DNA of 23,697 nt, taken from positions 1 to 23,697 of IMG/VR virus record IMGVR_UViG_3300013093_000281; one strand, 5' to 3'. Source of the stretch: a virus. Positions 2,653-22,486 of this stretch are shown one piece after another (the first letter of the stretch is position 1; every line of letters starts with the position of its first letter). A program made the translations under genes and the position numbers. The notes beneath the pieces were generated by a model, which had not been told where the DNA came from, did not search any database, and saw only the letters and a list, made by a program, of their open reading frames with translations.

Positions 2653-2862
2653 TTAGCTCAATTTTGCGACCAGATCCTCGTAAGTGAGGATCTCCACGCC
2701 GGCTTTCCTGGCTGCTTCCATTTTGGAAGAGTTGGAGTTCAGAGAATCCGTGAGCAAGTATTTAGCTTCCTTGAGAGGTTTGTGAACGTATCCATGAGAA
2801 GCCAGGAACTTGATGAGATCGCTCTTAACTTTGAAACCTGCATCCTTTGGTGACCCGGTCAT
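2653..2862 (-). pseudogene. Displaced original C-terminal tail of DNA ligase (BRCT fragment)
   Basis: A 69-residue frame that matches the last 72 residues of the ligase gene at 3576: about 46 identities, including VKSD, KYLLTDSL, SNSSKMEAARK and TYED. It is the C-terminal BRCT domain. Its ATG corresponds to the internal Met of the ligase phrase FEMTG, and it overlaps the endonuclease stop (ATGA, 2859-2862). Its base usage (for example TCCTCACTTACGAGGATCTG) is like the ligase body, whereas the tail now attached to the ligase is AT-rich. I infer this is the ancestral ligA 3' end, displaced by endonuclease insertion. It could still be made as a free BRCT peptide by coupling to the endonuclease stop. 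Confidence 0.85.
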
Positions 2863-3527
2863 ATAAACCTAAAAATTTTTCCTTTATAATCTTTTCTTTT
2901 TCCTCTGCATACATCTGCTATAGCTCTTCTTGCTACATTTGGGTTTTCAAATTGTTTGGCAGCTTCACTTGCACTATTATAGATATTTCCATCTTGGTCT
3001 CTTATCTTTAAAGCATTAGTAGGAGAAATCCCGCTTCTAGTAGAAAATCTACTCATATCTCCAGTATGTTTTTTCCCATAAAAAGAATTAGATTCTCCAA
3101 AATGTGAATAGTTACTCTTAGGTTTTTTTTCTTTTTCAGGAAAGACTTTTTTTATTCCCTCTTTGATTTTTTCTTTGTGCATTTCGGATAATTTTTTCCC
3201 TTTTCTGGCTTCAGATATTTTCTTACCTCTTTTTTCTTTCTGTTCTTCACTAAGAAAATCTCCACCTTGACCACCAGAAGCTATGTTATATCCTATTTTT
3301 TTATCCCTGGAATTTAACTTTTTTATCCAAAAAATTTCCCTTTCGTTTAATTTTTCTTTATCTTCTATAAAATTTTCTAAAATTTCTTTTTGAAAATTTT
3401 CGATTCCATATTTTTTAATGGCAGCTATCAGTACTAAACCGCTGCCAAAATATCTAGGGTTATACTTTAATTCTTGCCCAACGTAAATTTTACCGTTTAC
3501 GTTATTAGTAATCTTATAGATAAGCAT
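2859..3527 (-). CDS. GIY-YIG homing endonuclease with NUMOD3 and NUMOD1 DNA-binding modules
   Basis: A free-standing homing endonuclease of 222 residues. The N-terminal nuclease starts IYKITNNVNGKIYVG (residues 3-17), the GIY...YIG signature with IYK replacing GIY. FGSG (27-30) and KLNEREIFWI (59-68, candidate metal-binding Glu) complete the domain. Residues 101-124 (KKISEARKGKKLSEMHKEKI) are a NUMOD3 motif. Residues 174-222 (DQDGNIYNSASEAAKQF, then VCRGKRKDYKGKIFRF) are a NUMOD1/IENR1 helix-turn-helix. This is the modular plan of I-TevI and Seg enzymes. It would cut ligA alleles lacking the insertion. Much more AT-rich than ligA, consistent with transfer. Start follows a hairpin carrying TATAAATA. 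Confidence 0.92.
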   Translation of the reverse strand: MLIYKITNNVNGKIYVGQELKYNPRYFGSGLVLIAAIKKYGIENFQKEILENFIEDKEKLNEREIFWIKKLNSRDKKIGYNIASGGQGGDFLSEEQKEKRGKKISEARKGKKLSEMHKEKIKEGIKKVFPEKEKKPKSNYSHFGESNSFYGKKHTGDMSRFSTRSGISPTNALKIRDQDGNIYNSASEAAKQFENPNVARRAIADVCRGKRKDYKGKIFRFI

Positions 3528-3543
3528 GTTTGATTTATTGTTT

Positions 3544-3564
3544 ATCTATTTATATAGAATAGAT
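3544..3564 (-). promoter_or_regulatory. Hairpin with late-promoter-like loop before the GIY-YIG gene
   Basis: Plus-strand ATCTATT (3544-3550) and AATAGAT (3558-3564) form a perfect 7-bp stem around TATATAG. Read on the minus strand the loop and right arm spell TATATAAATAG, containing the T4 late consensus TATAAATA. It lies 17 nt before ATG 3527. Confidence 0.5.
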
Positions 3565-7257: not shown

Positions 7258-7595
7258 TCGAAATCGCGATGAGATTTTTTGTATTCTTTGACAGTGTCCT
7301 CAAAGAATTTCTGGATTTTTTCCATCATTTCTCTGTCCTCGTCGTCCAGTTTATGGACGTTCTTTTTCAGATAATGTTTGATGTACTCAGCTGCAGGCTT
7401 AGGCAGAATTGAAGGCTCTTCGTGATCCTCTTCTTTTTCTTTCTTAGGTTCAGGTTTTTCTTCGGGAGCATCTTCTTCTTGAGGTGCAGCTTCTTCTTCA
7501 GGTTCCTTATGCTTCTTAGCTTCATCAAGCTCCAGATCTTCCTGCTCGAAAGCTTCGTTCACAAAGCTATCGAAACCTTTCATGTAGTTTTTCAT
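7254..7595 (-). CDS. Unknown 113-aa acidic, proline-rich protein with capsid-targeting-like N-terminus
   Basis: I start at ATG 7595, because the longer frame (to 7646) runs through the late-type promoter at 7606-7620. The product begins MKNYMKGFDSFVNEAFEQ; FVNE-A resembles the (L/I)xE-A cleavage sites used by T4 prohead protease. A low-complexity Glu/Pro/Lys stretch (roughly residues 30-62, PEEEAAPQEEDAPEEKPEP) links this to a helical C-terminal part (EYIKHYLKKNVHKLDDEDRE). The build is reminiscent of scaffold or internal head proteins. No enzyme motif. First gene after its promoter; coupled to the 81-aa gene. A virion role is inferred. Confidence 0.8.
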   Translation of the reverse strand: MKNYMKGFDSFVNEAFEQEDLELDEAKKHKEPEEEAAPQEEDAPEEKPEPKKEKEEDHEEPSILPKPAAEYIKHYLKKNVHKLDDEDREMMEKIQKFFEDTVKEYKKSHRDFE

Positions 7596-7605
7596 AGTTC
7601 TTTTA

Positions 7606-7620
7606 TTTTTTCTATATAAC
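7606..7620 (-). promoter_or_regulatory. Late-type promoter (GTTATATAGAAAAA) for the acidic protein
   Basis: Minus strand GTTATATAGAAAAAA, ending 10 nt before ATG 7595. One of at least five sites with the same TATATAG plus A-tract core in this window (see 8424, 9474, 19027, 22473). Confidence 0.55.
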
Positions 7621-7642
7621 ACAAAATGACAACCAATCAGAA

Positions 7643-8410
7643 TCAAAGTTGGGACAGAAACATCTTAGCTTCCTTTTCTCTTCTGATTTTCAGACCGGGA
7701 TACTTATGACTTATGCCCGTGGTTTTTATCATTTCTCCGGCTTTCTTGTAGTCTCCATGTTTGACATGCTGTATGAATTCGGAGCCTCTGAACTTTGTTA
7801 TGCCCATGTTGAATGCCATGGAAACTAGAGCATTGTACTGCTCTTGCGTTATCTTTCTTTCAATTCCCTTCTCAGACCACTGATCGAACATTCTCTTGAC
7901 TCCTTCTTCAGCATCTGAGAGATCCTTTTCGAAAAACTTCTTTGCAGTTTCCAGGTCGATGTGCTGACCTCTTTTCAACTTAGTTTTCTTGATGTCCTCT
8001 GCATGTCCCCAGCCAACTGTGAGCTTATTGTCTCCAAGTTTGTAGACTTTCAGCTTTAGCTTTTCCTCGTTTTTTATGTGTTCTATGCCCTCTTTGTCAA
8101 GGCTCAATTTGAGAGGATCCTTGAAAGCAGCCAACTTGTCAATGAATTTGCTATCCACTATTGTGGTAGTTGCAGGATCCTTGATGGAATGTATGATGTT
8201 GTAGACTGTGGTAGAAGATGCAAGAACTAGAAGTGAGGTTACTAGGCGAGTCAGAACTTTCTTCTTGCTCTCCAGTGGTAAAGTTTTGATCTTGTCAATG
8301 ACTTTAACACACTTAGCTCTGAGAGATTCTGTGTCAATCCCTTCTTGGATCGCAAAGAGAGAATCAACATATTCGAGAATTACATGTTCTTCGAAATTCA
8401 AAATTTCCAT
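7643..8410 (-). CDS. T4-type lysozyme (GH24 endolysin) with N-terminal extension
   Basis: A muramidase cutting the peptidoglycan glycan strand, 255 residues against 164 for T4 lysozyme. The catalytic domain begins near residue 103: IKNEEKLKLKVYKLGD then KLTVGWGH (130-136) aligns with the T4 catalytic stretch, giving Glu116 and Thr131 as equivalents of Glu11 and Thr26. The Asp20 position appears to be Leu125, with Asp127 two residues on. ALVSMAFNMG and YPGLKIRREKE are family landmarks. The first 100 residues are extra and hold a hydrophobic helix (about 52-73, VLTRLVTSLLVLASSTTVY), perhaps a membrane anchor or signal-arrest segment. Late-type promoter at 8424-8440. It could be the lysis enzyme or a virion-associated lysozyme. 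Confidence 0.93.
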   Translation of the reverse strand: MEILNFEEHVILEYVDSLFAIQEGIDTESLRAKCVKVIDKIKTLPLESKKKVLTRLVTSLLVLASSTTVYNIIHSIKDPATTTIVDSKFIDKLAAFKDPLKLSLDKEGIEHIKNEEKLKLKVYKLGDNKLTVGWGHAEDIKKTKLKRGQHIDLETAKKFFEKDLSDAEEGVKRMFDQWSEKGIERKITQEQYNALVSMAFNMGITKFRGSEFIQHVKHGDYKKAGEMIKTTGISHKYPGLKIRREKEAKMFLSQL

Positions 8411-8423
8411 GCAGAAGGAAAGG

Positions 8424-8440
8424 GATTTTGACTATATATC
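8424..8440 (-). promoter_or_regulatory. Late-type promoter (GATATATAGTCAAAA) for lysozyme
   Basis: Minus strand GATATATAGTCAAAATC. Its GAT ATA TAG also forms the last codons and the stop of the upstream gene, as at 19033. It lies 13 nt before lysozyme ATG 8410. Confidence 0.5.
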
Positions 8441-8690: not shown

Positions 8691-9440
8691 TTACTGTTTG
8701 AGTAAGAATCTGATAGCATTCTCCAAGAGCTTGGATTGCGTCAGAGTTTTCTCTATGTGAGGGCTAGTAGCAATCACGTGTCCCTTTCCCTTCTTGACAT
8801 AGATAGCAGCGATGGAACCCTTCACAAAATCTTCGACTCCTTGGTTAGCATGTGGAATCTCTTCATCAAAGATCATCAGGGTTTTGAAACCCTTTTCAGG
8901 AGTGGGAAGGACTACAGGTCCTCCGTGCCAGTAAAGTTTCACAGTGTCTCTAACGGTTCCGAATACTTTTTTACCTTCTGTCGTGAGTCCAAAGTCAGAG
9001 TAGACTGGTTCGGCAGGTAGATCGTCTCCATAGTCATAGGGATTAACTGGAAGAACTCCAAGAGCATGAAGTTCGGCGGGTTGGTTATCATCCGTGATTT
9101 TCAGATGCTCTCCGGTGGAGAGAAGAAAAAAGCCTGCACAAACAGCTAAAACTTTTCCACCCTCTGCTATCCACTTTTCCAGATCTTTCTTTCCCTGATG
9201 AGTCATGCTGATGCTCTGCTTGAGAGAGCTTCCTCCTGGAATGACTACTAAATCCATCTCAGAGAAATTATCGTAGAGAAAAGTCTCAGACGTGAATTCA
9301 GTAGGCTCCAAGTGGAAATAATTTCTGAAGAATACGCTCCATGTCTGAATAGTAGTAACCGTGACTCCGGAATCAAAGTAGATTCCAATTTTGAGATTAG
9401 AATCCTTATCAAAGTCTCCGAAAGATTTTATCAGTTTCAT
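8691..9440 (-). CDS. Class I glutamine amidotransferase-like protein, BPL_N type
   Basis: 249 residues. After a short leader (MKLIKSFGDFDKDSN), the core IGIYFDSGVTVTTIQTW begins a DJ-1/PfpI/glutamine-amidotransferase fold. MDLVVIPGG (62-70) and the nucleophile elbow AVCAGFFLLS (Cys101) are clear, and YWHGGPVV later matches the GGP signature of the 'biotin-protein ligase N-terminal' (BPL_N) family. A catalytic His is plausible near the SPHIE motif close to the C-terminus. Family members outside the fused yeast ligase have unknown activity. It stands alone behind a late-type promoter and hairpin leader, and its N-terminus resembles the other late proteins, so it may be packaged (inference). Enzyme family likely; substrate unknown. 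Confidence 0.8.
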   Translation of the reverse strand: MKLIKSFGDFDKDSNLKIGIYFDSGVTVTTIQTWSVFFRNYFHLEPTEFTSETFLYDNFSEMDLVVIPGGSSLKQSISMTHQGKKDLEKWIAEGGKVLAVCAGFFLLSTGEHLKITDDNQPAELHALGVLPVNPYDYGDDLPAEPVYSDFGLTTEGKKVFGTVRDTVKLYWHGGPVVLPTPEKGFKTLMIFDEEIPHANQGVEDFVKGSIAAIYVKKGKGHVIATSPHIEKTLTQSKLLENAIRFLLKQ

Positions 9441-9457
9441 GCGCTGCTTGGGGTTGA

Positions 9458-9488
9458 GATGACGAGTGTCATCGTTTTTCTATATATC
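9458..9488 (-). promoter_or_regulatory. Late-type promoter with an immediate leader hairpin
   Basis: Minus strand GATATATAGAAAAAC (9488-9474) is followed directly by GATGAC-ACTC-GTCATC (9473-9458), a perfect 6-bp stem with a 4-nt loop. The pair lies 17 nt before ATG 9440. A hairpin at the very 5' end of the transcript could protect it from decay. Confidence 0.55.
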
Positions 9489-9502
9489 CTCGTTTTAGCA
9501 CA

Positions 9503-9531
9503 ACAAAGGGAGCTTCTGAAGCTCCCTTTGT
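9503..9531 (-). terminator. Strong hairpin terminator after nrdA
   Basis: ACAAAGGGAGCTTC (9503-9516) and GAAGCTCCCTTTGT (9518-9531) are exact reverse complements, a 14-bp arm pair around one base. It starts eight nt after the nrdA stop. The T-rich tail on either strand is short, so it may act mostly as a 3' stabilising hairpin. Confidence 0.8.
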
Positions 9532-9538
9532 TTCATTC

Positions 9539-11278
9539 TTAGGATCCGCAGGCTAGACAATCTTCAGGATTGTCCAAGCTACAGGATACTGCATCCATCA
9601 CAGAGTATTCTTCAACGAGAACTTGAGGTTTCTGAACTGAGCTGAGATCCACTCCCAGGCCTGCCAGAGCTTCGGTAGCAGCTTTGGTTCTCAAGTAGTA
9701 CATTCCAGTCTTAAGACCCTTTTTCCAAGCGTGGAAGTGTGCAGCTGTTAATTTAGCAGCATTGACTCCTTCGATGAAGAGGTTCAAGCTTTGAGACTGG
9801 TCGATGAAAGCTCCACGATCAGCCGACATGTCTATGAGATCTCTCTGTTTGAGTTCCCATACAGTCATGTAGAGCTGTTTGATATCAGTGGGTATCTCCA
9901 TGATGCTCTGCACGGAACCCTTAGCGGAGATCAGTCTCAATCTCATCTCCTCTGACCAGAGATTTCTGTTGATCAGATCTTCCACTAGATGCTTGTTGAC
10001 TAGTGTGTATTCTCCAGCCAGTGTTCTTCTCTTGTAGAGATTGGTGGTGAAGGGTTCGAAAGCTTCATTGTTTCCAAGAATCTGTGCAGTCGAAGCTGTT
10101 GGCATCGGCGCTACAAGAAGCGAATTTCTCACGCCATGCTTAGCAATCTTCTCTCTTAGAGATTTCCAATCCCATCTTTCAGAAGGAGATTCATCCCACA
10201 TATCGAACTGTAGGATACCCTTGGAGATTGGAGATCCCTTGTAAGTTTCGTAAGTACCTTCTTTCACTGCTATGTCGCAAGAGGCGCTCAATGCTGCATA
10301 GTAGATAGTTTCAAAGATGTCCCTGTTGAGTTTCTTTGCTTCCGGTGAGGTGAAGGGTAGTCCCAGTATAGCAAACGTGTCAGCCAATCCCTGGATTCCC
10401 AAACCCACTGGTCTGTGTCTCATGTTGGATTTTCTAGCTTCCTTCACTGGATAGTAGTTGACATCTATGACTTTGTTCAAGTTCTTAGTAGCCTGGTATG
10501 TGACTTCGTAGAGCTTGTTAAAGTCGAAACTTCTCTTTGTCTTATCGTTGCTCTTTCTATTTGGAGGATAAGTGATGTACTTAGGAAGAGCTAATGAAGC
10601 TAAGTTGCATACAGCTATCTCATCCGGAGAAGTGAACTCCATGATCTCCGTGCATAGATTGCTACCTTTCAGAGTTCCCAGATTTTTCTGGTTGTTCTTT
10701 CTGTTAGCGCTGTCCTTGTAGAGCATGTAGGGTGTTCCAGTCTCAATCTGAGACTCCACAATTTTTTCCCAAAGTTCTCTAGCTCTAACCGTCTTTCTAC
10801 CTCTTCCCTCTTTTTCGTACTTTTCGTAGAGTTTTTCAAATTCCTCTCCGTAACATTCTTCCATACCAGGTGCTTCATCCGGAGAGAAGAGTGTCCAGTC
10901 TCTATCTTCCTCCACTCTTCTCATGAAGAGATCCGAGATCCAGAGTGCCAGGAAAAGATCTCTAGCTCTAAGCTCCTCCTTGCCGTGATTCTTTCTGAGA
11001 TCGATGAAATCGAAAATGTCTGCGTGCCATGGTTCCAAGTAGATAGCGATCGAACCCTTTCTCTTGCCACCACCATTATGAACATATCCGACATTAGAAA
11101 GATGATAATTTTCGTTTAAAGAAATTTTCAAATCGAAAACTTTTAAATTTTCCACCTTCTCAACTTCTATTTCTTCAATTTCGGAAAAAAAAGAGTGTTT
11201 TTTATCAATTCCGAGATCGATGAGCGGGCTTTCGACGTAAGGAATATTAAAATCTTCCATATCTAATTTTTTATTCAT
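9539..11278 (-). CDS. nrdA: Split intein C-half fused to class Ia ribonucleotide reductase large subunit, C-terminal part
   Basis: Residues 1-68 are the intein C-half: block [19 protein letters not shown] and block G YVHN, ending at Asn68. The extein starts [17 protein letters not shown] and covers the last 511 residues of the reductase: NLCTE (Cys209 and Glu211, equivalents of E. coli Cys439 and Glu441), Cys224 (the Cys462 partner), [18 protein letters not shown], and the C-terminal shuttle CLAC (Cys574, Cys577). Joined to the N-part this makes 799 residues, a normal NrdA length. The +1 residue after Asn68 is Gly, not Cys, Ser or Thr, so ordinary splicing should fail; the DNA reads CAT AAT GGT GGT GGC. 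ATG 11278 overlaps the endonuclease stop by eight nt. Confidence 0.95.
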
Positions 11279-12248
11279 ATTTCATAATTATTTTTTCAGT
11301 TTTTCCATCGGTTCTGAAAATCCAGAACATAAAATTAATCTTTTGTTTTATGACAGCAAAAGATTTTAACAGACTGGTATTTTCATAATCTTCTATCATG
11401 CCTCTTTTGTTAAAAGTCCAATCGCTCTTTACTTCGACAATTAAATTCTCGGATTTAATGTAAATATCCGGCAAGTATTTTCTGATTTTTCCATCAGCGG
11501 TCTTGTAAGAAATAGTTCCTATGTGCTTTCTTATTTCAAAATCATCTATCAATAAGTCATCTTCTTTATATAAAGTTAAAAGTTCTTTTAAGACTAAATT
11601 CTCAAATCCTTGTGTTTTGATGACTAGACCGGATGGTAATGTGAAAGGTTTTCTTTTTCCGCTACAGTTCCATAAAATATGATAGCATTGTTTATCTCCA
11701 CAAGAATTACAAAAATTACCTCTAACATCTTGAAGTTTGACTTGTTTTCCACATCTACATCTAGGAATCTCAGAGATTCCATGTTTCAATGCATAAATCC
11801 TATGTCTAAGAGAAGGATTTAAATCATCTAAAAATGATGTCTTTTTTTCCAGCTCTTTTATAATTTCTTCAAATCTATCATGACATTGTATGAGTTGAGA
11901 TATTTTTCCAGCATCATCTTCAATGCCAGAAAATTTTTCGAAAATTTTCTCTATGTATTTCTTTGAGTCAAATTTGTAATAGTTAAGTTTAAGTTCATTC
12001 ACATCTTCCAGAAAATTGACTGAAATGCCCTTGGAAAAACCTCTGAATATCTGTTTTTTTCCGTTTTGTACTAACGGAAGCTTTTTATATCTAAAATAGT
12101 AACATTTTTCAAAAAAAGAGAAAAATTCAAACTCATTTTGTTTAGCATAGTCCATGATTTTCTCATAAATCTCTGGGTTATGTTTTTTGACATAAAATGC
12201 CTTTTTATTATTTCCAGCTTTATCATTTACCCATATATCTTCTGTCAT
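11271..12248 (-). CDS. PD-(D/E)xK / Vsr-like homing endonuclease in the split intein
   Basis: A 325-residue free-standing endonuclease. N-terminal half: possible DNA-recognition region ([19 protein letters not shown]) and a zinc-ribbon-like cluster C164, C166, C180, C183. C-terminal half: nuclease with [13 protein letters not shown] (Glu216), RKYLPDIYI (Asp261) and [11 protein letters not shown] (Glu272, Lys274), the E...PD...ExK order seen in Vsr-like endonucleases. Endonucleases of that type occur between halves of split inteins. It would cut nrdA lacking the insertion. Unlike its neighbours it has a strong Shine-Dalgarno sequence (AGGAGG, six nt before ATG) buried in a 14-bp hairpin (12248-12291). 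AT-rich, consistent with recent transfer. The exact catalytic set needs a family alignment. Confidence 0.85.
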
Positions 12249-12291
12249 TTTCTTCCTCCTTTTTCTTTTATATATTCAAGGAGGAAGAAAA
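12248..12291 (-). promoter_or_regulatory. Translation-control hairpin hiding a Shine-Dalgarno, with late-promoter-like loop
   Basis: TTTTCTTCCTCCTT (minus 12291-12278) pairs perfectly over 14 bp with AAGGAGGAAGAAAA (12261-12248). The right arm holds AAGGAGG and the A of the endonuclease ATG. The 16-nt loop GAATATATAAAAGAAA contains the nrdA-N stop TAA (12270-12268) and a TATATAAAAG box. Read-through mRNA would mask the start; a transcript starting from the loop would expose it. Confidence 0.8.
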
Positions 12292-13422
12292 AATTCTATC
12301 AGTTTTCAAAAGGTTTTTAGCTTCTATCCAGTCTATTTCTTCATTTTTTCGTTTGACTAAAAATAAATGCTCCGGAGTCACTCTTATAGTTTTACCGTTT
12401 ATTTTTAGAACAATCAACTCTCCAGTGTAACTATATTCCTTACGTTCTAAAACTTCCTGATAAGTATTATCGTGAGTTAATACTTTGTCTCCAGAGCTTA
12501 TTTCTGATATCTTTTTTGACCCTTCCGTGGTGTCAATTTCTGTTTCTTCAGTGAAACATTGATCCACTGCTCGAGCCATCTCATTGAAGATCTTCAGAAA
12601 AGGGATGATGCCGTTGGAAACACCGTTAGTGCCCTTGATGTATGCACCTGAAGCTCTCATCTTGTGCCAATGAATTCCGATTCCTCCTGCGTTCTTTGAG
12701 ATCAGAGAAGCATTTTTCAGAGTATCGAAGATTCCCTCTATGGAATCTTCTTTCAGATCCAGGAGAAAGCAGGAAGAGAGTTGGGGTCTCCTGGTTCCGG
12801 AATTGAAAAGCGTGGGAGTAGCATGAGTGAAGTAACCGTTAGAAAGAAGTTCGTATGTCTTGATAGTCTCTTCCAGGTTACCTGACCAGATTCCACAAGC
12901 TACTCTCATCCACATATGTTGGGGTCTTTCCACCACTTTACCTTCGATTTTCAGAAGATAAGATTTTTCCAGAGTCTTGTAACCGAAGTAATCAAAGTTA
13001 AAATCTCTATCGTAATTGATAGCTTTGTCCAAGACTTCGTGATTTTCCTGAATGTACTTGAAAACTTCAGGATCGATCAGGGATGCTGATTTCCCCGTCT
13101 TACTATCGATGTACTCGTAGAGGTCTTTGATAGTTTCCGAGAAGGATTTCTTGGTGCTCTTATGAAGAGAAGTTACTGCAATCCTACTAGCTAAGATTGC
13201 GTAGTCAGGGTGATAGGAAGTCATGGAAGCAGCTGTTTCCGCTGATAGATCGTCAAGCTCGACCGAAGAAACTCCGTCATAGACTCCTTGGATGACTTTC
13301 TGGGCAACTTCGAAAGAATCCACAAAATTGGAATCCAAACCGTACGTTTGTTTCCTGATTCGTGTGGTTATCTTGTCGTATTTTACAAGCTCTTTTGAGC
13401 CGTCTCTTTTGATAACGTGCAT
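12268..13422 (-). CDS. nrdA: Class Ia ribonucleotide reductase large subunit, N-terminal part, fused to split intein N-half
   Basis: Residues 1-288 are NrdA: an ATP-cone (1 to about 90, starting HVIKRDGSKELVKYDKI), the barrel start with RPQHMWMRVACGI (166-178), THATPTLFNSGTRRPQLSSC (199-218; Cys218 is the E. coli Cys225 equivalent) and ISKNAGGIGIHWHKMRASGA. At 289 an intein begins after MARAVDQ: Cys1 of CFTEETEIDTTEG (block A) and TIRVTPEHLFLV (block B, with the T-x2-H motif). It stops at 12268 after IFSSSLNI. The sequence ([18 protein letters not shown]) is nearer the eukaryote-like class Ia form than E. coli NrdA. Presence of the ATP-cone implies overall activity control by ATP/dATP. Leader is A/T-rich with no Shine-Dalgarno. 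Confidence 0.95.
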   Translation of the reverse strand: MHVIKRDGSKELVKYDKITTRIRKQTYGLDSNFVDSFEVAQKVIQGVYDGVSSVELDDLSAETAASMTSYHPDYAILASRIAVTSLHKSTKKSFSETIKDLYEYIDSKTGKSASLIDPEVFKYIQENHEVLDKAINYDRDFNFDYFGYKTLEKSYLLKIEGKVVERPQHMWMRVACGIWSGNLEETIKTYELLSNGYFTHATPTLFNSGTRRPQLSSCFLLDLKEDSIEGIFDTLKNASLISKNAGGIGIHWHKMRASGAYIKGTNGVSNGIIPFLKIFNEMARAVDQCFTEETEIDTTEGSKKISEISSGDKVLTHDNTYQEVLERKEYSYTGELIVLKINGKTIRVTPEHLFLVKRKNEEIDWIEAKNLLKTDRIFSSSLNI

Positions 13423-13451
13423 ATTAGAATAAAAATGTTTTTAGAATGTAG

Positions 13452-13514
13452 TTAGAAATCCTCGTTGAAAGAAAAAGTGTCCTGGTCATTCTTATTGATG
13501 ACTCCTGCTTTCAT
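13452..13514 (-). pseudogene. Displaced original C-terminal tail of nrdB (20 codons)
   Basis: A 20-residue frame, MKAGVINKNDQDTFSFNEDF, matches the end of the neighbouring NrdB ([20 protein letters not shown]). Its ATG overlaps the stop of the HNH endonuclease (ATGA, 13511-13514). It is inferred to be the ancestral nrdB 3' end. If translated by coupling, the product would be a free R2 C-terminal peptide, the part of R2 that docks onto R1. Confidence 0.85.
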
Positions 13515-14431
13515 TTACTCTCATTTAGTAATTGATAAAAGTCTTCGATACTAAGCTTTGTCCACCCAGATTTTCCCTGGTTTTCTTTGCACCATAGCAT
13601 TTGAAGATTCTTTTTATCTGATATAAGAACGGGATCTATTTTATTTTTCCAACCTTCAACAATTGGATAAATATGGTCTAGATGCCAACCATTTTTGCTT
13701 CTTCTGTATTTGTTGGGATTTATTTCATAGAAATATTTTCTATAGTTTCTTTCTGTAAAATAACTTACAGCTCTCTTATACCAAAAAAAATCTTCCAATA
13801 ATTCTGGTCTTTTTTTCCAGTCTATGAAAATTCCCCTTTCATACTTAGTCTGAAGTGTCTTTTCTGGAAGACCCTCAATCTTCATTGGATTATCCACTCC
13901 ATATTTTTTTAACCATGTCTCTTTTATTTTGTCTCTTACTTTCTTAGATGAAAATGGATGGCCACCATATCGCTCTTGCCAATTTTTTTTTATTTTATCT
14001 TTTACTTCTTCCGATAGGAATGGATGGCCGCCAAATTTAGTCTTAAATGTCTCTTGAATTTTTTCTTTTAATACGCCATGCGCAATATTTCTATGACCAT
14101 ATTTTTCAGTGCATGTTTTCTCGCATTTCTTTCTGGTTTCTTCATAGTTAGCTGAACATTTAACTGAACAGAAATCGAAAAATCCAAAGGAAAACTGTTT
14201 AAATTTTGTAAGTTTTTCGCAGTTTTTGCATTTTGGCCATTCTTCTAATTCATTAAAGAAACAATAAAGTCTACTACTAAATGGTAGTAATTTTACCCAA
14301 TGATGATCTTCTTCGTACGACAAAAGATCATCATATAATTCTGGGAATCTTTTTTTAAAAGATGAACTGATAGGTTTTATTCCAGAATTTCCCTTTTTCT
14401 GGAAGAATTCGTAACATTCTTGTTTTTCCAT
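13511..14431 (-). CDS. HNH homing endonuclease with zinc ribbon and repeated DNA-binding motifs
   Basis: 306 residues. N-terminal part (FKKRFPELYDDLLSYEEDHH) resembles the start of the endonuclease at 11271. A CxxC...CxxxC ribbon follows (C68, C71, C88, C92). Then come three or four copies of a KYG/KFGGHPF...VKDKIK-type repeat (about 109-196), probably DNA-binding. The nuclease motif is NGWHLDHIYPI (H250, D252, H253), then NLQMLW (N275) and KENQGKSG (N284). Repeats of this kind followed by HNH are familiar from phage endonucleases. It should cut the nrdB end lacking the module. AT-rich. The ATG sits just after GATATATAAAAC. Confidence 0.92.
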   Translation of the reverse strand: MEKQECYEFFQKKGNSGIKPISSSFKKRFPELYDDLLSYEEDHHWVKLLPFSSRLYCFFNELEEWPKCKNCEKLTKFKQFSFGFFDFCSVKCSANYEETRKKCEKTCTEKYGHRNIAHGVLKEKIQETFKTKFGGHPFLSEEVKDKIKKNWQERYGGHPFSSKKVRDKIKETWLKKYGVDNPMKIEGLPEKTLQTKYERGIFIDWKKRPELLEDFFWYKRAVSYFTERNYRKYFYEINPNKYRRSKNGWHLDHIYPIVEGWKNKIDPVLISDKKNLQMLWCKENQGKSGWTKLSIEDFYQLLNESK

Positions 14432-14451
14432 GTTTTATATATCGAAACAAG
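14419..14451 (-). promoter_or_regulatory. Inverted repeat with TATATAAAAC loop around the HNH gene start
   Basis: Plus-strand CTTGTTT (14419-14425) and AAACAAG (14445-14451) can form a 7-bp stem whose loop holds both GATATATAAAAC and the ATG at 14431. Weaker than the 12248 hairpin, but of the same layout. Confidence 0.35.
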
Positions 14452-14474
14452 CTTATTCGAATGACGTGTTTCAG

Positions 14475-15461
14475 TTAAAAATCAGCATCTAGTGAAAATG
14501 TTGTATCTTTATCGTTTCGATTCAACACTCCTGCTTTCTGATACTCTGAATTTCTCTTCTCGAAGAAGTTAGTCTTACCTTCCAGGGCAATGTTTTCCAT
14601 GAAATCAAAGGGATTCTTTGAATGATATTCCTTCTCGTATCCGAGTGAGACGAGAAGCCTGTCAGTAACAAATTCCAAGTACTGCTTCATCAGATCCGAA
14701 TTCATGCCGATCAACCTAACCGGCAGGGCGTCAGTTATGAATTCCTTCTCTATTTCCAAAGCAGAACCCAGAATTTCCAAGATCCTTTTACGTGAAAGTT
14801 TCTGATCAATGTGATTACGGTAGAGTAGACATGCAAAATCGGTATGAAGTCCTTCGTCTCTTGAGATGAGCTCATTGGAAAATGATAGACCGGGCATGAG
14901 TCCTCTTTTCTTTAGCCAGAAAATTGAACAGAAACTTCCGGAGAAGAAGATACCTTCCACAGCAGCGAATGCGACCAGTCTCTCCACGAATTTGGGGCTG
15001 TTGATCCATTTCAATGCCCATTCTGCTTTGCGTTTAACTGCGGGAACTGTATCGATCGCGTTGAAGAGATAGTCCTTCTCGGTAGGATCGGTGATGTATG
15101 TATCGATCAGAAGCGAATAGACTTCTGAGTGTATGTTTTCAACCATGATCTGAAATCCGTAGAAGCAACGGGCTTCGGCGTACTGAACTTCCTGAAGGAA
15201 GTTGACTCCGAGATTTTCATTGACTATACCGTCAGAAGCTGCAAAGAATGCTAGAACATGCTTTACGTAGTGCTTCTCGTTTTCAGTGAGTTTCTCTCTC
15301 CAGTCAGTTAAGTCCTGAGCTAGATCGATTTCCTCAGCAGTCCAGAATGCTGCTTCATGGGTTTTGTAGGCTTGCCAGATGTCATGATGTTTGATGGGGA
15401 ATAGCACGAACCTTGTTGGGTCGTCTTGCAAGATCTTTTCAATTTTTGTTTCTTTTTCCAT
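14475..15461 (-). CDS. nrdB: Class Ia ribonucleotide reductase small subunit
   Basis: Makes and stores the tyrosyl radical that NrdA uses to reduce ribonucleotides. 328 residues. Di-iron ligands by comparison with mouse R2: Asp46 (EEIDLAQD), Glu108 and His111 (ENIHSEVY), Glu169, Glu203 and His206 (RDEGLH); radical Tyr115. The sequence ([20 protein letters not shown]) is eukaryote-like. The last 20 residues, from Lys309, are the replacement tail brought by the HNH module and end TTFSLDADF, almost the mouse R2 tail FTLDADF; the older tail lies at 13452-13514. A terminator (15503-15533) separates it from the polymerase gene. No Shine-Dalgarno sequence. Confidence 0.97.
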
Positions 15462-15502
15462 TTAGTTAAATATTTAATTCTTTCGATAATCAGTGACAAG
15501 GC

Positions 15503-15533
15503 TACAAAAACTTTCTTCAGCTTCGAAGAAAGT
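15503..15533 (-). terminator. Rho-independent terminator between polymerase and nrdB
   Basis: Minus strand ACTTTCTTC (15533-15525), loop GAAGCT, GAAGAAAGT (15518-15510), then TTTTGTAG; 9-bp stem with a T-tract. Confidence 0.8.
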
Positions 15534-15564
15534 TTCATTTGGGTGTTGCAAGTAAATATATTGT

Positions 15565-15579
15565 ATATTCTATATAACT
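15565..15579 (-). promoter_or_regulatory. Late-type box (GTTATATAGAATATA) upstream of the terminator
   Basis: Minus strand GTTATATAGAATATA, just after the polymerase stop and about 35 nt before the terminator stem. It has the TATATAG core but lacks the full A-tract. If active it would give a short RNA or read through to nrdB. The 133-nt spacer holds no other gene. Confidence 0.3.
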
Positions 15580-15594
15580 CACTGGACTCATGAT

Positions 15595-16980
15595 TTACTT
15601 CTCCAGGAGAACTTTGTTCAAAAAATCTATCTCAGTTTCGATGTTCTTGTACTTCTTCTGAGAGTCCTTTCTCTTACCGTAAAAGTCAGCAAGGATGGTT
15701 CTCATCACAGAATCTTCAGAATTATCAAAGACTGCTCCTGATGCAGTAGTTATCCAGCCAGAGTTCTCAGGAATGTCCACGTTCTTTCCTTTGTAGGATT
15801 CCGGAGAAATGTTCCACTGTCTCATGGTGGATGGGTACAGAGATGCAAAGTCAAAGGTAGCTAAGTACTGGTGCAATCCCTTTCTCGGATCTTTCACATA
15901 AGCACCTTCAAAAGATTGTGCTTTGCTGGATTTTTTGGTCTCCGCGATGACTCTCTTTCTCTTGTAGAATTCACGAATCATGTTGCATTCCGTCATCCAG
16001 ATCGGAGAAAAAGCTCGAAGAGCTTCCACTCGAGTCACATTAGCTAACATGAGAAATGTTTGCATGGTGTTGATCTTCTTGTCCAAGAGATACACCAAGT
16101 AAGTATCCACTGCGTTATAGAAAACGTAAGTCTCAAAGTCATTGTTATAGAGATCCTGAAGAGATCCGTTGTACTTGATCTTTTCGATTCCCAGAGCTGC
16201 TTTAGCAACGGTATCAAGTTTGTTGTTTTCCTTGATCTTCACCACTCTATCCCATTTCTTGTAGAGATCCAAGTAGTCGACTACGATCTTGTGCATAGGG
16301 ATCTGATCATCACCCTGAAGAGTTCTGTTCTTGTCCAATGCACAGATGGAGGGATCCACTCCCAATCTCTTGCATCGATTGATCAGATATTTCCAGTCGA
16401 ATCCGATGAAGTTCCATCCGGTGATCAGAGGCGCATCCTTGAACCATTTTCCAAAAAGAGTCATCAGCATCTCTGCTTCCGAGAGAAAGTGAAAGTACTG
16501 AAAGGAAGGATTAGGGTTGTATTCCTTGAGGTGCTCAGTGTAACGTTTCTCTATGTTTCTGATCTGCTGAGGTTCCAATTTCTTAGTTCCGAGAACGTAA
16601 GTCTGTCCCTTGCAAACTAGAGCTACTGCTGTGACGGGAGTCTTTGCTAGAGCTGGATCCGGAAATTCATCGAGAACTTCCACCTCAATATCACAGAACC
16701 AGATCTCAGGGTTGTTGAACTCATAGACGTCTTTCATGTATTCCTCACCGAGTGAGTACAGATACTCCTCGATTCTGAAACGATTCAACCAGTAAGATTT
16801 GACTTTCTTCACGGGTTTACCGTCCCAAGATTGAAAGAAAGGATCCTGTCTTTCGGAACCTGCAGGTTCCCATTTGTATTTTTCAGTGCGAGGAATGGGA
16901 ACTTCCTTGAACTTAATTTTTCCGTCCTTTCCGAAATGCGAAATTCTCAAACGATCGTCTAATTGTTCTATGGAGATCAT
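15595..16980 (-). CDS. 43: Family B DNA polymerase, N-terminal half (gp43-like; exonuclease to motif A)
   Basis: Replicative polymerase piece of 461 residues. Proofreading exonuclease: Exo I FCDIEVE (Asp97, Glu99), Exo II GWNFIGFDWKYL (Asn190, Asp195), Exo III YNAVDTYLV (Tyr288, Asp292). Palm motif A: DFASLYPS (377-384), followed by RQWNISPE as in T4 gp43. The frame ends in KNIETEIDFLNKVLLEK, just before the position where gp43 has the fingers motif KxxxNSxYG; motif B and the DTD motif C are missing here. So the gene is split, like 43A/43B of some Aeromonas phages, and the rest must be elsewhere. No endonuclease follows the break, only a terminator. Preceded by a small membrane-protein gene. 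Confidence 0.95.
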   Translation of the reverse strand: MISIEQLDDRLRISHFGKDGKIKFKEVPIPRTEKYKWEPAGSERQDPFFQSWDGKPVKKVKSYWLNRFRIEEYLYSLGEEYMKDVYEFNNPEIWFCDIEVEVLDEFPDPALAKTPVTAVALVCKGQTYVLGTKKLEPQQIRNIEKRYTEHLKEYNPNPSFQYFHFLSEAEMLMTLFGKWFKDAPLITGWNFIGFDWKYLINRCKRLGVDPSICALDKNRTLQGDDQIPMHKIVVDYLDLYKKWDRVVKIKENNKLDTVAKAALGIEKIKYNGSLQDLYNNDFETYVFYNAVDTYLVYLLDKKINTMQTFLMLANVTRVEALRAFSPIWMTECNMIREFYKRKRVIAETKKSSKAQSFEGAYVKDPRKGLHQYLATFDFASLYPSTMRQWNISPESYKGKNVDIPENSGWITTASGAVFDNSEDSVMRTILADFYGKRKDSQKKYKNIETEIDFLNKVLLEK

Positions 16981-19026: not shown

Positions 19027-19041
19027 GTTTTTCTATATATC
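19027..19041 (-). promoter_or_regulatory. Late-type promoter (GATATATAGAAAAAC) for the 87-aa gene
   Basis: Minus strand GATATATAGAAAAAC. The first nine bases also encode the last two residues (Asp-Ile) and stop of the upstream gene. It lies 10 nt before ATG 19016. Confidence 0.55.
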
Positions 19042-22472: not shown

Positions 22473-22486
22473 TTTTTCTATATATC
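22473..22486 (-). promoter_or_regulatory. Late-type promoter (GATATATAGAAAAA) for the 22462-17960 block
   Basis: Minus strand GATATATAGAAAAA, 10 nt before ATG 22462; a full match to the shared motif. It lies in a 58-nt AT-rich spacer. Confidence 0.6.

What the first reader, a model, noticed from the sequence alone, without database searches (positions are those of the whole stretch)
12248..12291. I-TevI-like control: perfect hairpin hides the endonuclease start, late promoter in its loop
A 14-bp perfect stem buries AAGGAGG and the A of ATG, while the loop carries TATATAAAAG. Transcripts reading through nrdA would fold and block translation; transcripts starting from the loop box would lose the left arm and expose the ribosome site. 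T4 I-TevI uses just this design (RBS-masking hairpin plus an internal late promoter). Here it occurs in a split-intein endonuclease, apparently convergent. The same bases also encode the end of intein N (SSSLNI and stop).
Basis: partly seen in the sequence, partly recalled or inferred. Interest (0 to 1): 0.88.

Follow-up and report, generated by a model that had tools for sequence, protein, structure and literature searches.

The report
Hairpin and late promoter timing endonuclease
In an uncultivated phage that probably infects Bacteroidota, a perfect RNA hairpin hides the start of a homing-endonuclease gene lying between the two halves of a split intein, and its loop carries what looks like the phage's own late promoter, so the nuclease is probably switched on only late; the same layout recurs before other such nuclease genes in related phages.

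Summary
The hairpin is real: a 14-bp perfect stem (minus strand, 12291-12278 / 12261-12248) with a 16-nt loop. It buries AAGGAGG and the A of ATG of a homing-endonuclease gene lying between the halves of a split-intein nrdA. The loop box ATATATAAAAG fits a clade motif: TATATA(G/A)A is sense-strand-biased before genes of the window and three sister contigs, which encode a T4 gp55-type late sigma factor. In the related huge phage LR756500.1, GATATATAA precedes tail-sheath, head, tail-tube, terminase and endolysin genes. With T4 geometry the late transcript would start at 12261, the foot of the right arm, and lose the left arm.

The layout recurs: start-masking stems containing a late-type box precede nuclease genes in LR756500.1 and three further IMG/VR contigs, and a probable one in G009 (21-bp stem). 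The left arm is translated and the stop codon lies in the loop, so ribosomes finishing intein N could open the stem, unlike in T4. The phage hardly uses Shine-Dalgarno sites, so masking of the whole start region matters, not only AAGGAGG. Known kind (I-TevI/II/III, segB, Aeh1 mobE), new variant. No transcript or protein data exist.

The parts
12278..12291 (-). left arm of the stem, also codons of the intein-N tail (TCT TCC TCC = SSS)
12262..12277 (-). 16-nt loop, holding the stop codon of nrdA-intein N (12270-12268)
12265..12275 (-). ATATATAAAAG, late-promoter-like box; with T4 spacing the start would be at 12261 (inferred)
   Evidence: motif; T4 geometry from PMC2988020, section 3 part 1
12248..12261 (-). 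right arm: AAGGAGG (12261-12255), spacer, A of ATG
11271..12248 (-). 325-aa homing-endonuclease gene (DUF7487, PD-(D/E)xK-like pattern)
   Evidence: PF24308 3.4e-21; endonuclease PHROG 2.1e-4; E216, D261, E272, K274 invariant in 4 of 4 aligned. No PDB sequence relative at E 0.1 or better; structure model unusable, pLDDT 32.8
12268..13422 (-). nrdA N-extein plus intein N (intein from 12558)
9539..11278 (-). intein C (to about 11075) plus nrdA C-extein
22477..22485 (-). same-family box ATATATAGA before the 610-aa gene
19032..19040 (-). same-family box ATATATAGA, about 24 nt before an internal Met of the 104-aa ORF
   Evidence: start re-reading by eye
9479..9487 (-). same-family box ATATATAGA before the 249-aa gene
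8431..8439 (-). box variant ATATATAGT before the 255-aa gene (lysozyme-like by eye)

Best explanation
The hairpin is a timing switch for a homing endonuclease. On long (early or middle) transcripts running in from nrdB/nrdA, the end of the intein-N coding sequence pairs with the endonuclease start region and hides it. Late in infection a gp55-type RNA polymerase starts at the box in the loop, at about 12261; that mRNA lacks the left arm, its roughly 13-nt leader is unstructured and the endonuclease is made. Shown here: the stem, the masking in silico, the box as a sense-strand, start-linked motif of the clade, its place before virion genes in LR756500.1, gp55 homologues in the sister contigs, and recurrence of the layout at other endonuclease genes. 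Inferred: that the box is active, that transcription starts at about 12261, that read-through RNA is poorly translated, and that the host is a Bacteroidota.
For: Stem and stability. Start region 0.14 unpaired on read-through RNA against 0.92 on a late transcript. ATATATARA sense:antisense 5:0 window, 6:0 G001, 10:0 G003, 7:0 G004, 4:0 G002. In LR756500.1 GATATATAA lies 12-42 nt before a start in 23 of 39 copies, 0.8 expected, before tail sheath, major head, tail tube, head protease, baseplate, terminase and endolysin genes. gp55 family in 6 of 12 records searched, among them G002, G003, G004. Same layout at other nuclease genes: strict test 8 of 2184 starts against a summed shuffle mean of 0.275; IMG/VR pattern scan, 6 of the 8 start-linked matches are nucleases. 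T4 I-TevI/II and Aeh1 mobE show the same layout (PMC2988022 section 12).
Against: No expression data. One phage only, so no covariation. The loop box is the A-variant and scores low on the G-form matrix; ATATATARA in G002 (4) is within its shuffle range (mean 1.1, maximum 5); the reversed-pattern control is also strand-biased or start-linked in some records, partly because it overlaps the motif. gp55 was not found in G001, a 34-kb fragment. The left arm is translated, so read-through RNA may not stay folded. Some hairpin genes are not nucleases: in LR756500.1 a 649-aa gene, and with G-U pairs a baseplate and a head-protease gene; in G005 an 88-aa gene; L178 and L182. Other nuclease genes lack the hairpin, e.g. 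13511-14431 in the window.
Confidence: 0.7

Rival explanations
1. Translational coupling. The stem makes endonuclease synthesis depend on translation of nrdA-intein N: a ribosome reaching the stop codon in the loop has melted the left arm and can reinitiate at the ATG 19 nt downstream. The hairpin then sets the ratio of endonuclease to NrdA rather than its timing. It could also act together with the late promoter.
For: Left arm wholly coding, stop in the loop, 19 nt to the ATG. With the left arm held open the start region is 0.67 unpaired. Coupling is proposed for T4 mobE, whose start overlaps the nrdA stop (PMC2988022, passages).
Against: Does not explain the late-type box in the loop. The left arm is not translated in the ligase-interrupting case (upstream ORF ends 59 nt before that ATG), and in the T4 introns the host stop is 129-227 nt away, so coupling is not the shared feature.
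Confidence: 0.3
2. DNA-level operator: the inverted repeat around the box is a binding site for a repressor, perhaps the endonuclease itself, as I-TevI represses its own late promoter.
For: I-TevI binds an operator overlapping its late promoter (PMC2988022, passages).
Against: Arm sequences and lengths (about 7-29 bp) and spacers vary widely between nuclease genes, while cover of the start region is shared. No binding test was possible.
Confidence: 0.12
3. Specialised-ribosome control: the strong SD is read by ribosomes lacking bS21, as for rpsU in Flavobacterium, so the endonuclease responds to ribosome composition during infection.
For: The only strong SD among 160 starts of G001-G004; Bacteroidia ribosomes without bS21 favour strong SDs (PMC9976891, abstract and section 32).
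Against: Pairing with the recalled core anti-SD is -10.6 kcal/mol, weaker than the below -13 typical of rpsU; the leader also has A at -3, -6, -12 and -13, so it needs no SD; the other hairpin nucleases seen have no SD; the host is inferred.
Confidence: 0.06
4. Chance inverted repeat without function.
For: 2 of 200 whole-window shuffles hold some perfect repeat of 14 bp or more.
Against: Position on the start codon, late-type box in the loop and recurrence at nuclease starts.
Confidence: 0.06

Closest known systems
mobE of Aeromonas phage Aeh1 (hairpin plus late promoter, endonuclease gene inside nrdA)
   Same: Endonuclease gene splits nrdA; stem masks the start region; late promoter and hairpin control reported in the review (PMC2988022 section 12)
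   Different: HNH endonuclease; nrdA halves not joined by an intein in that report; left arm lies after the nrdA-A stop, which ends 46 nt before the ATG; host uses SD (recalled). The two original papers are not held
I-TevI, I-TevII, I-TevIII of phage T4
   Same: Late-promoter box and RBS in one hairpin; late transcripts lose the left arm (PMC2988022 section 12; my folds)
   Different: Intron-encoded, GIY-YIG or HNH nucleases; arms far from the translated host ORF (129-227 nt); box TATAAATA
Fractured genes with split inteins and a free endonuclease (Dassa et al. 2009, seen only as a citation in PMC3653736 and PMC10448857)
   Same: Host gene split by intein N - endonuclease gene - intein C; PMC3653736 cites that study for 7 nrdA and 2 nrdJ interrupted by inteins (passages)
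   Different: I could not open that paper; no report of hairpin or late-promoter control of such endonucleases appeared in the listings
Endonuclease gene splitting the DNA ligase gene of LR756500.1 (L019 3344-4357)
   Same: 45% identity over 124 residues; 11-bp start-masking stem with the late box
   Different: No SD; the box itself forms the left arm; no intein seen

Membership tests
T4-type hairpin/late-promoter control of homing endonucleases | Stable stem that sequesters RBS and/or start codon | tested here: met
T4-type hairpin/late-promoter control of homing endonucleases | Late-promoter motif placed so that the late RNA lacks the left arm | tested here: met
   Motif level only (geometry from PMC2988020); weak on the G-form matrix
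T4-type hairpin/late-promoter control of homing endonucleases | gp55-type late transcription in the phage | tested here: inconclusive
   gp55 family in sister contigs G002-G004, not in the 34-kb fragment G001 of the phage itself
T4-type hairpin/late-promoter control of homing endonucleases | Mapped late 5' end, and translation blocked on long transcripts | not testable with these tools
   needs RNA and protein data
T4-type hairpin/late-promoter control of homing endonucleases | Left arm outside the translated host ORF (seen in T4 and Aeh1; my own criterion) | tested here: not met
   why this is filed as a variant
Fractured gene with split intein and free endonuclease | IntN fused to the N-extein, IntC fused to the C-extein, endonuclease ORF between | tested here: met
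Fractured gene with split intein and free endonuclease | Uninterrupted allele in relatives | tested here: met
   [12 protein letters not shown] in G002, G003, G004
Fractured gene with split intein and free endonuclease | Trans-splicing and cleavage of the empty site | not testable with these tools
   note the +1 Gly
PD-(D/E)xK-type (Vsr-like) endonuclease | Family match and conserved catalytic-like pattern | tested here: inconclusive
   PF24308 is a family of unknown function; endonuclease PHROG 2.1e-4; E216, D261, E272, K274 invariant in 4; no usable structure

The most novel reading that the evidence does not exclude
Start-masking hairpins built around the late-promoter box are a recurrent timing device of homing endonucleases of at least two nuclease types (GIY-YIG and PD-(D/E)xK, perhaps also HNH) in gp55-encoding phages of Bacteroidota and kin. 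In the window the repressing arm is the coding tail of an intein half, giving two modes: coupled to NrdA translation early, autonomous from its own promoter late.
Probability: 0.3. Interest if true: 0.8.

Novelty: new variant of a known kind. Interest (0 to 1): 0.63.

Why it matters
The hairpin/late-promoter design was described in T4 and relatives such as Aeh1. Finding it at split-intein, ligase-interrupting and free-standing nucleases of very different phages, whose probable hosts hardly use Shine-Dalgarno sites, suggests that selfish nucleases repeatedly need late timing. It offers a sequence signature (late box mirrored onto the start codon) for finding them and their phages' late promoters, and a testable case in which protein-coding sequence doubles as an RNA switch.

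Tried and rejected
Exact TATATAAAAG as the phage's late motif: rejected, one copy in G001, none in G002-G004; the broader TATATA(A/G)A stands. sigma-70 promoter scan of 9400-15600: no excess over shuffles. TTTG-TAnnTTTG promoters: none in the window or G001. Hairpin as terminator: no T-run after the stem on either strand (sequence). Close relatives of the endonuclease: only the same phage in IMG/VR, none in genome contigs. Rfam: no match in the window or L018. Structure of the endonuclease: single-sequence model unusable, so no fold search was run.

Extension to other phages, strict test (perfect stem of at least 10 bp, covering ATG, box inside): G001 1 of 40, G002 0 of 22, G003 0 of 59, G004 0 of 39, G009 1 of 49, LR756500.1 5 of 625; G005 1 of 284, G006 0 of 72, G008 0 of 119, LR756504.1 0 of 875. 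Shuffle means: 0.125 for LR756500.1, 0.15 for LR756504.1, 0.0 for the others. The G005 case is an 88-aa gene with no sign of being a nuclease. GATATATAA in LR756502.1 and Lak-C1 is not above its reversed control; these two were not pursued. In LR756500.1 a 23-bp start-masking stem sits on an AAA+ gene (by eye) and a 15-bp one on a 366-aa gene without a family above E 0.04; neither has the box. Fisher tests on its 52 late-box genes, 34 of them scanned against PHROGs (hairpin of 9 bp or more, up to two G-U, against nuclease class): 7 of 10 against 4 of 24, p 0.005; p 0.0002 if the 18 unscanned genes count as non-nucleases; p 0.02 (or 0.003) if genes hitting only phrog_22677 are not counted as nucleases; p 0.02 for strict stems. 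The hairpin thresholds were chosen after seeing data.

Shine-Dalgarno with a looser definition: 3 of 28 starts in the window (0.6 in shuffles), 2 of 38 in G001 (0.5), 0 in G002, G003 and G004. The two window cases besides the endonuclease are an in-frame start I doubt and a plus-strand ORF.

Full report
OBSERVATION. The genes concerned are on the minus strand. The stem is 12291-12278 / 12261-12248, 14 of 14 pairs, with a 16-nt loop. The sense RNA folds at -18.7 kcal/mol, z -4.8, 0 of 200 shuffles as good. AAGGAGG is 12261-12255, and the A of ATG is the last paired base. The upstream ORF ends FSSSLNI-stop; its TAA is 12270-12268 in the loop, 19 nt from the ATG.

WHAT THE LOCUS IS. nrdA is split: N-extein plus intein N (12268-13422), a 325-aa endonuclease gene (11271-12248), intein C plus C-extein (9539-11278). 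Sister contigs G002, G003 and G004 (NrdA 73-76% identical) carry nrdA with neither intein nor endonuclease, [12 protein letters not shown], so the insert looks like a mobile unit; its GC (0.29-0.32) is far below the exteins (0.43-0.45). The endonuclease matches DUF7487 (3.4e-21) and an endonuclease PHROG (2.1e-4), and shares 45% identity over 124 residues with a gene that interrupts the DNA ligase gene of the 462-kb phage LR756500.1. The element was seen only in this phage (the second contig is 99.98% identical). LR756504.1 has a split intein at the same nrdA site with another ORF between; the longest start-masking stem there is 6 bp.

HOST. Among the best named phage relatives of NrdA, ligase and polymerase are phages of Tenacibaculum, Cellulophaga, Chryseobacterium and Prevotella; Sphingomonas phage PAU, and for NrdA further down Pseudomonas phages, are also listed. 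The start regions are A-rich, and a GGAGG/AAGGAG-type site occurs at 1 of 160 starts of G001-G004, that of the endonuclease, and at 3 of 625 in LR756500.1. I infer a Bacteroidota host; this is not proven. Bacteroidia ribosomes fail to recognise SD sequences in general, and initiation there relies on A at -3, -6, -12, -13 and low structure (PMC9976891: abstract, section 32 and found passages). The endonuclease leader AAGGAGGAAGAAA has A at all four positions, so once unfolded it could be read with or without the SD.

THE PROMOTER IN THE LOOP. The exact string TATATAAAAG occurs once, but k-mer counts in upstream regions put TATATAG(A) and GATATATA among the top motifs in the window, G001, G003 and G004. 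ATATATARA is found on the sense strand only: window 5:0, G001 6:0, G003 10:0, G004 7:0, G002 4:0; dinucleotide shuffles give means of 0.1, 0.1, 1.8, 1.3 and 1.1, so G002 alone is within its shuffle range (maximum 5). The sites are mostly intergenic and often 22-35 nt before a start; TATATARA lies 15-39 nt before a start in 4 of 9 (window), 4 of 10 (G001), 5 of 10 (G003), 6 of 10 (G004) and 2 of 5 (G002) cases, where 2-3% is expected by position. The G002 sites have the A-form, as the loop does. The controls are not spotless: the reversed pattern is also strand-biased or start-linked in some records, partly because it overlaps the motif, and a matrix dominated by the G-form scores the loop box 7.6, below the best antisense site at 11.2. 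The clearest support is LR756500.1: GATATATAA lies 12-42 nt before a start in 23 of 39 copies (0.8 expected; three altered motifs gave 1 of 25, 0 of 69 and 1 of 13). Of 30 late-box genes scanned, hits include tail sheath, major head protein, tail tube, head protease, baseplate wedge, terminase and endolysin families; 13 had no family. gp55 homologues occur in G002, G003, G004, G009, LR756500.1 and LR756504.1, 6 of 12 records searched; G001, a fragment, has none. T4 late boxes start at -13 (PMC2988020, section 3, part 1 of 5); applied here, transcription starts at 12261, the first base of the right arm. The start region is then 0.92 unpaired against 0.14 on read-through RNA.

RECURRENCE. I scanned ORF starts for perfect stems reaching the start region. 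Strict cases (at least 10 bp, covering ATG, box inside) number 8 of 2184 starts in ten records against a summed shuffle mean of 0.275: the window phage 1, G009 1, G005 1, LR756500.1 5. The LR756500.1 cases are genes of 430 aa (26-bp stem; only phrog_22677 of unknown function), 337 aa (homing endonuclease), 272 and 232 aa (endonucleases), and a 649-aa gene without a PHROG, with an A/T-run stem. G009, whose own box is TATAAATA (6 of 12 copies near starts), has a 21-bp stem with that box in the loop before a 298-aa gene with a zinc-finger-like N-terminus; its HNH-like motif is read by eye. The G005 case is an 88-aa gene without sign of a nuclease. With up to two G-U pairs, 7 of 10 nuclease-class late-box genes of LR756500.1 have a stem of 9 bp or more against 4 of 24 other scanned ones (p 0.005; 0.02 with the stricter nuclease class). 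Those four include a baseplate and a head-protease gene; PMC2988022 section 12 notes that T4 uses such masking for ordinary late genes too. A pattern scan of IMG/VR for GATATATAAAATA-N1-8-ATATATC gave 18 matches; in 8 an ORF of at least 50 aa starts at the stem, and 6 of those 8 hit homing-endonuclease or endonuclease PHROGs, three of them outside the contig that resembles LR756500.1 (3 of 5 there). In these the box itself forms the left arm and is mirrored just before or over the ATG.

MECHANISM. Most likely the hairpin hides the endonuclease on long transcripts and the loop promoter makes a hairpin-free mRNA late. The special feature is that the left arm is translated. In T4 the unspliced host stop lies 129, 167 and 227 nt before the endonuclease ATG; in Aeh1 it is 46 nt, with the arm after the stop. 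Here a ribosome reaching the stop has opened the stem (0.67 unpaired with the left arm held open). Coupled low-level expression early is therefore a real rival or addition. The arm falls in a tail (FSSSLNI) beyond the stretch shared with the LR756504.1 intein N (..TDRI), so it could evolve to fit the RNA.

KNOWN OR NEW. The principle is known for I-TevI, I-TevII, I-TevIII, segB and Aeh1 mobE (PMC2988022, passages and section 12). Fractured genes with split inteins are known (Dassa 2009, seen only as a citation). Eight full-text searches showed, in their listings, no report of this control in split-intein endonucleases or in phages of Bacteroidota; the library lacks most subscription papers. 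I file it as a new variant of a known kind.

Noticed in passing
window 12558 and 11072-11077 (intein borders): The intein ends ..VHN but the next extein residue is Gly, not Ser/Thr/Cys; L007, L008 and L018 show the same VDQ|C..HN|GGG site. An intein with +1 Gly would need an unusual splicing route (recalled knowledge) or may only cleave.
   Followed up: partly
window 15595-16980: DNA polymerase B gene ends at 461 aa before nrdB; sister contigs G002-G004 also match only about residues 1-456 before nrdB, so the polymerase looks split in this clade; the C-terminal part was not seen.
   Followed up: partly
window 14434-14442 and 3549-3556: Two other endonuclease genes (13511-14431, DUF7487; 2859-3527, GIY-YIG) also have TATATAAA-type boxes close to their starts but no comparable hairpin; the first box is only 11 nt from the ATG.
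   Followed up: partly
window 11565-11572: A further TATATAAA(G) inside the endonuclease gene, 294 nt before the intein-C ORF; could drive late expression of the nrdA C-half.
   Followed up: no
window 9502-9532: 15-bp perfect inverted repeat just after the end of nrdA, terminator-like on the + strand.
   Followed up: no
L018 (LR756504.1) about 7370-7736: nrdA seems interrupted again just after GGGK by about 0.3 kb without a long ORF; Rfam finds no intron there.
   Followed up: partly
LR756500.1 108673-109662: 23-bp perfect stem masking the start of an AAA+ ATPase-like gene (by eye), without a late box: another hairpin-hidden start of unknown purpose.
   Followed up: no
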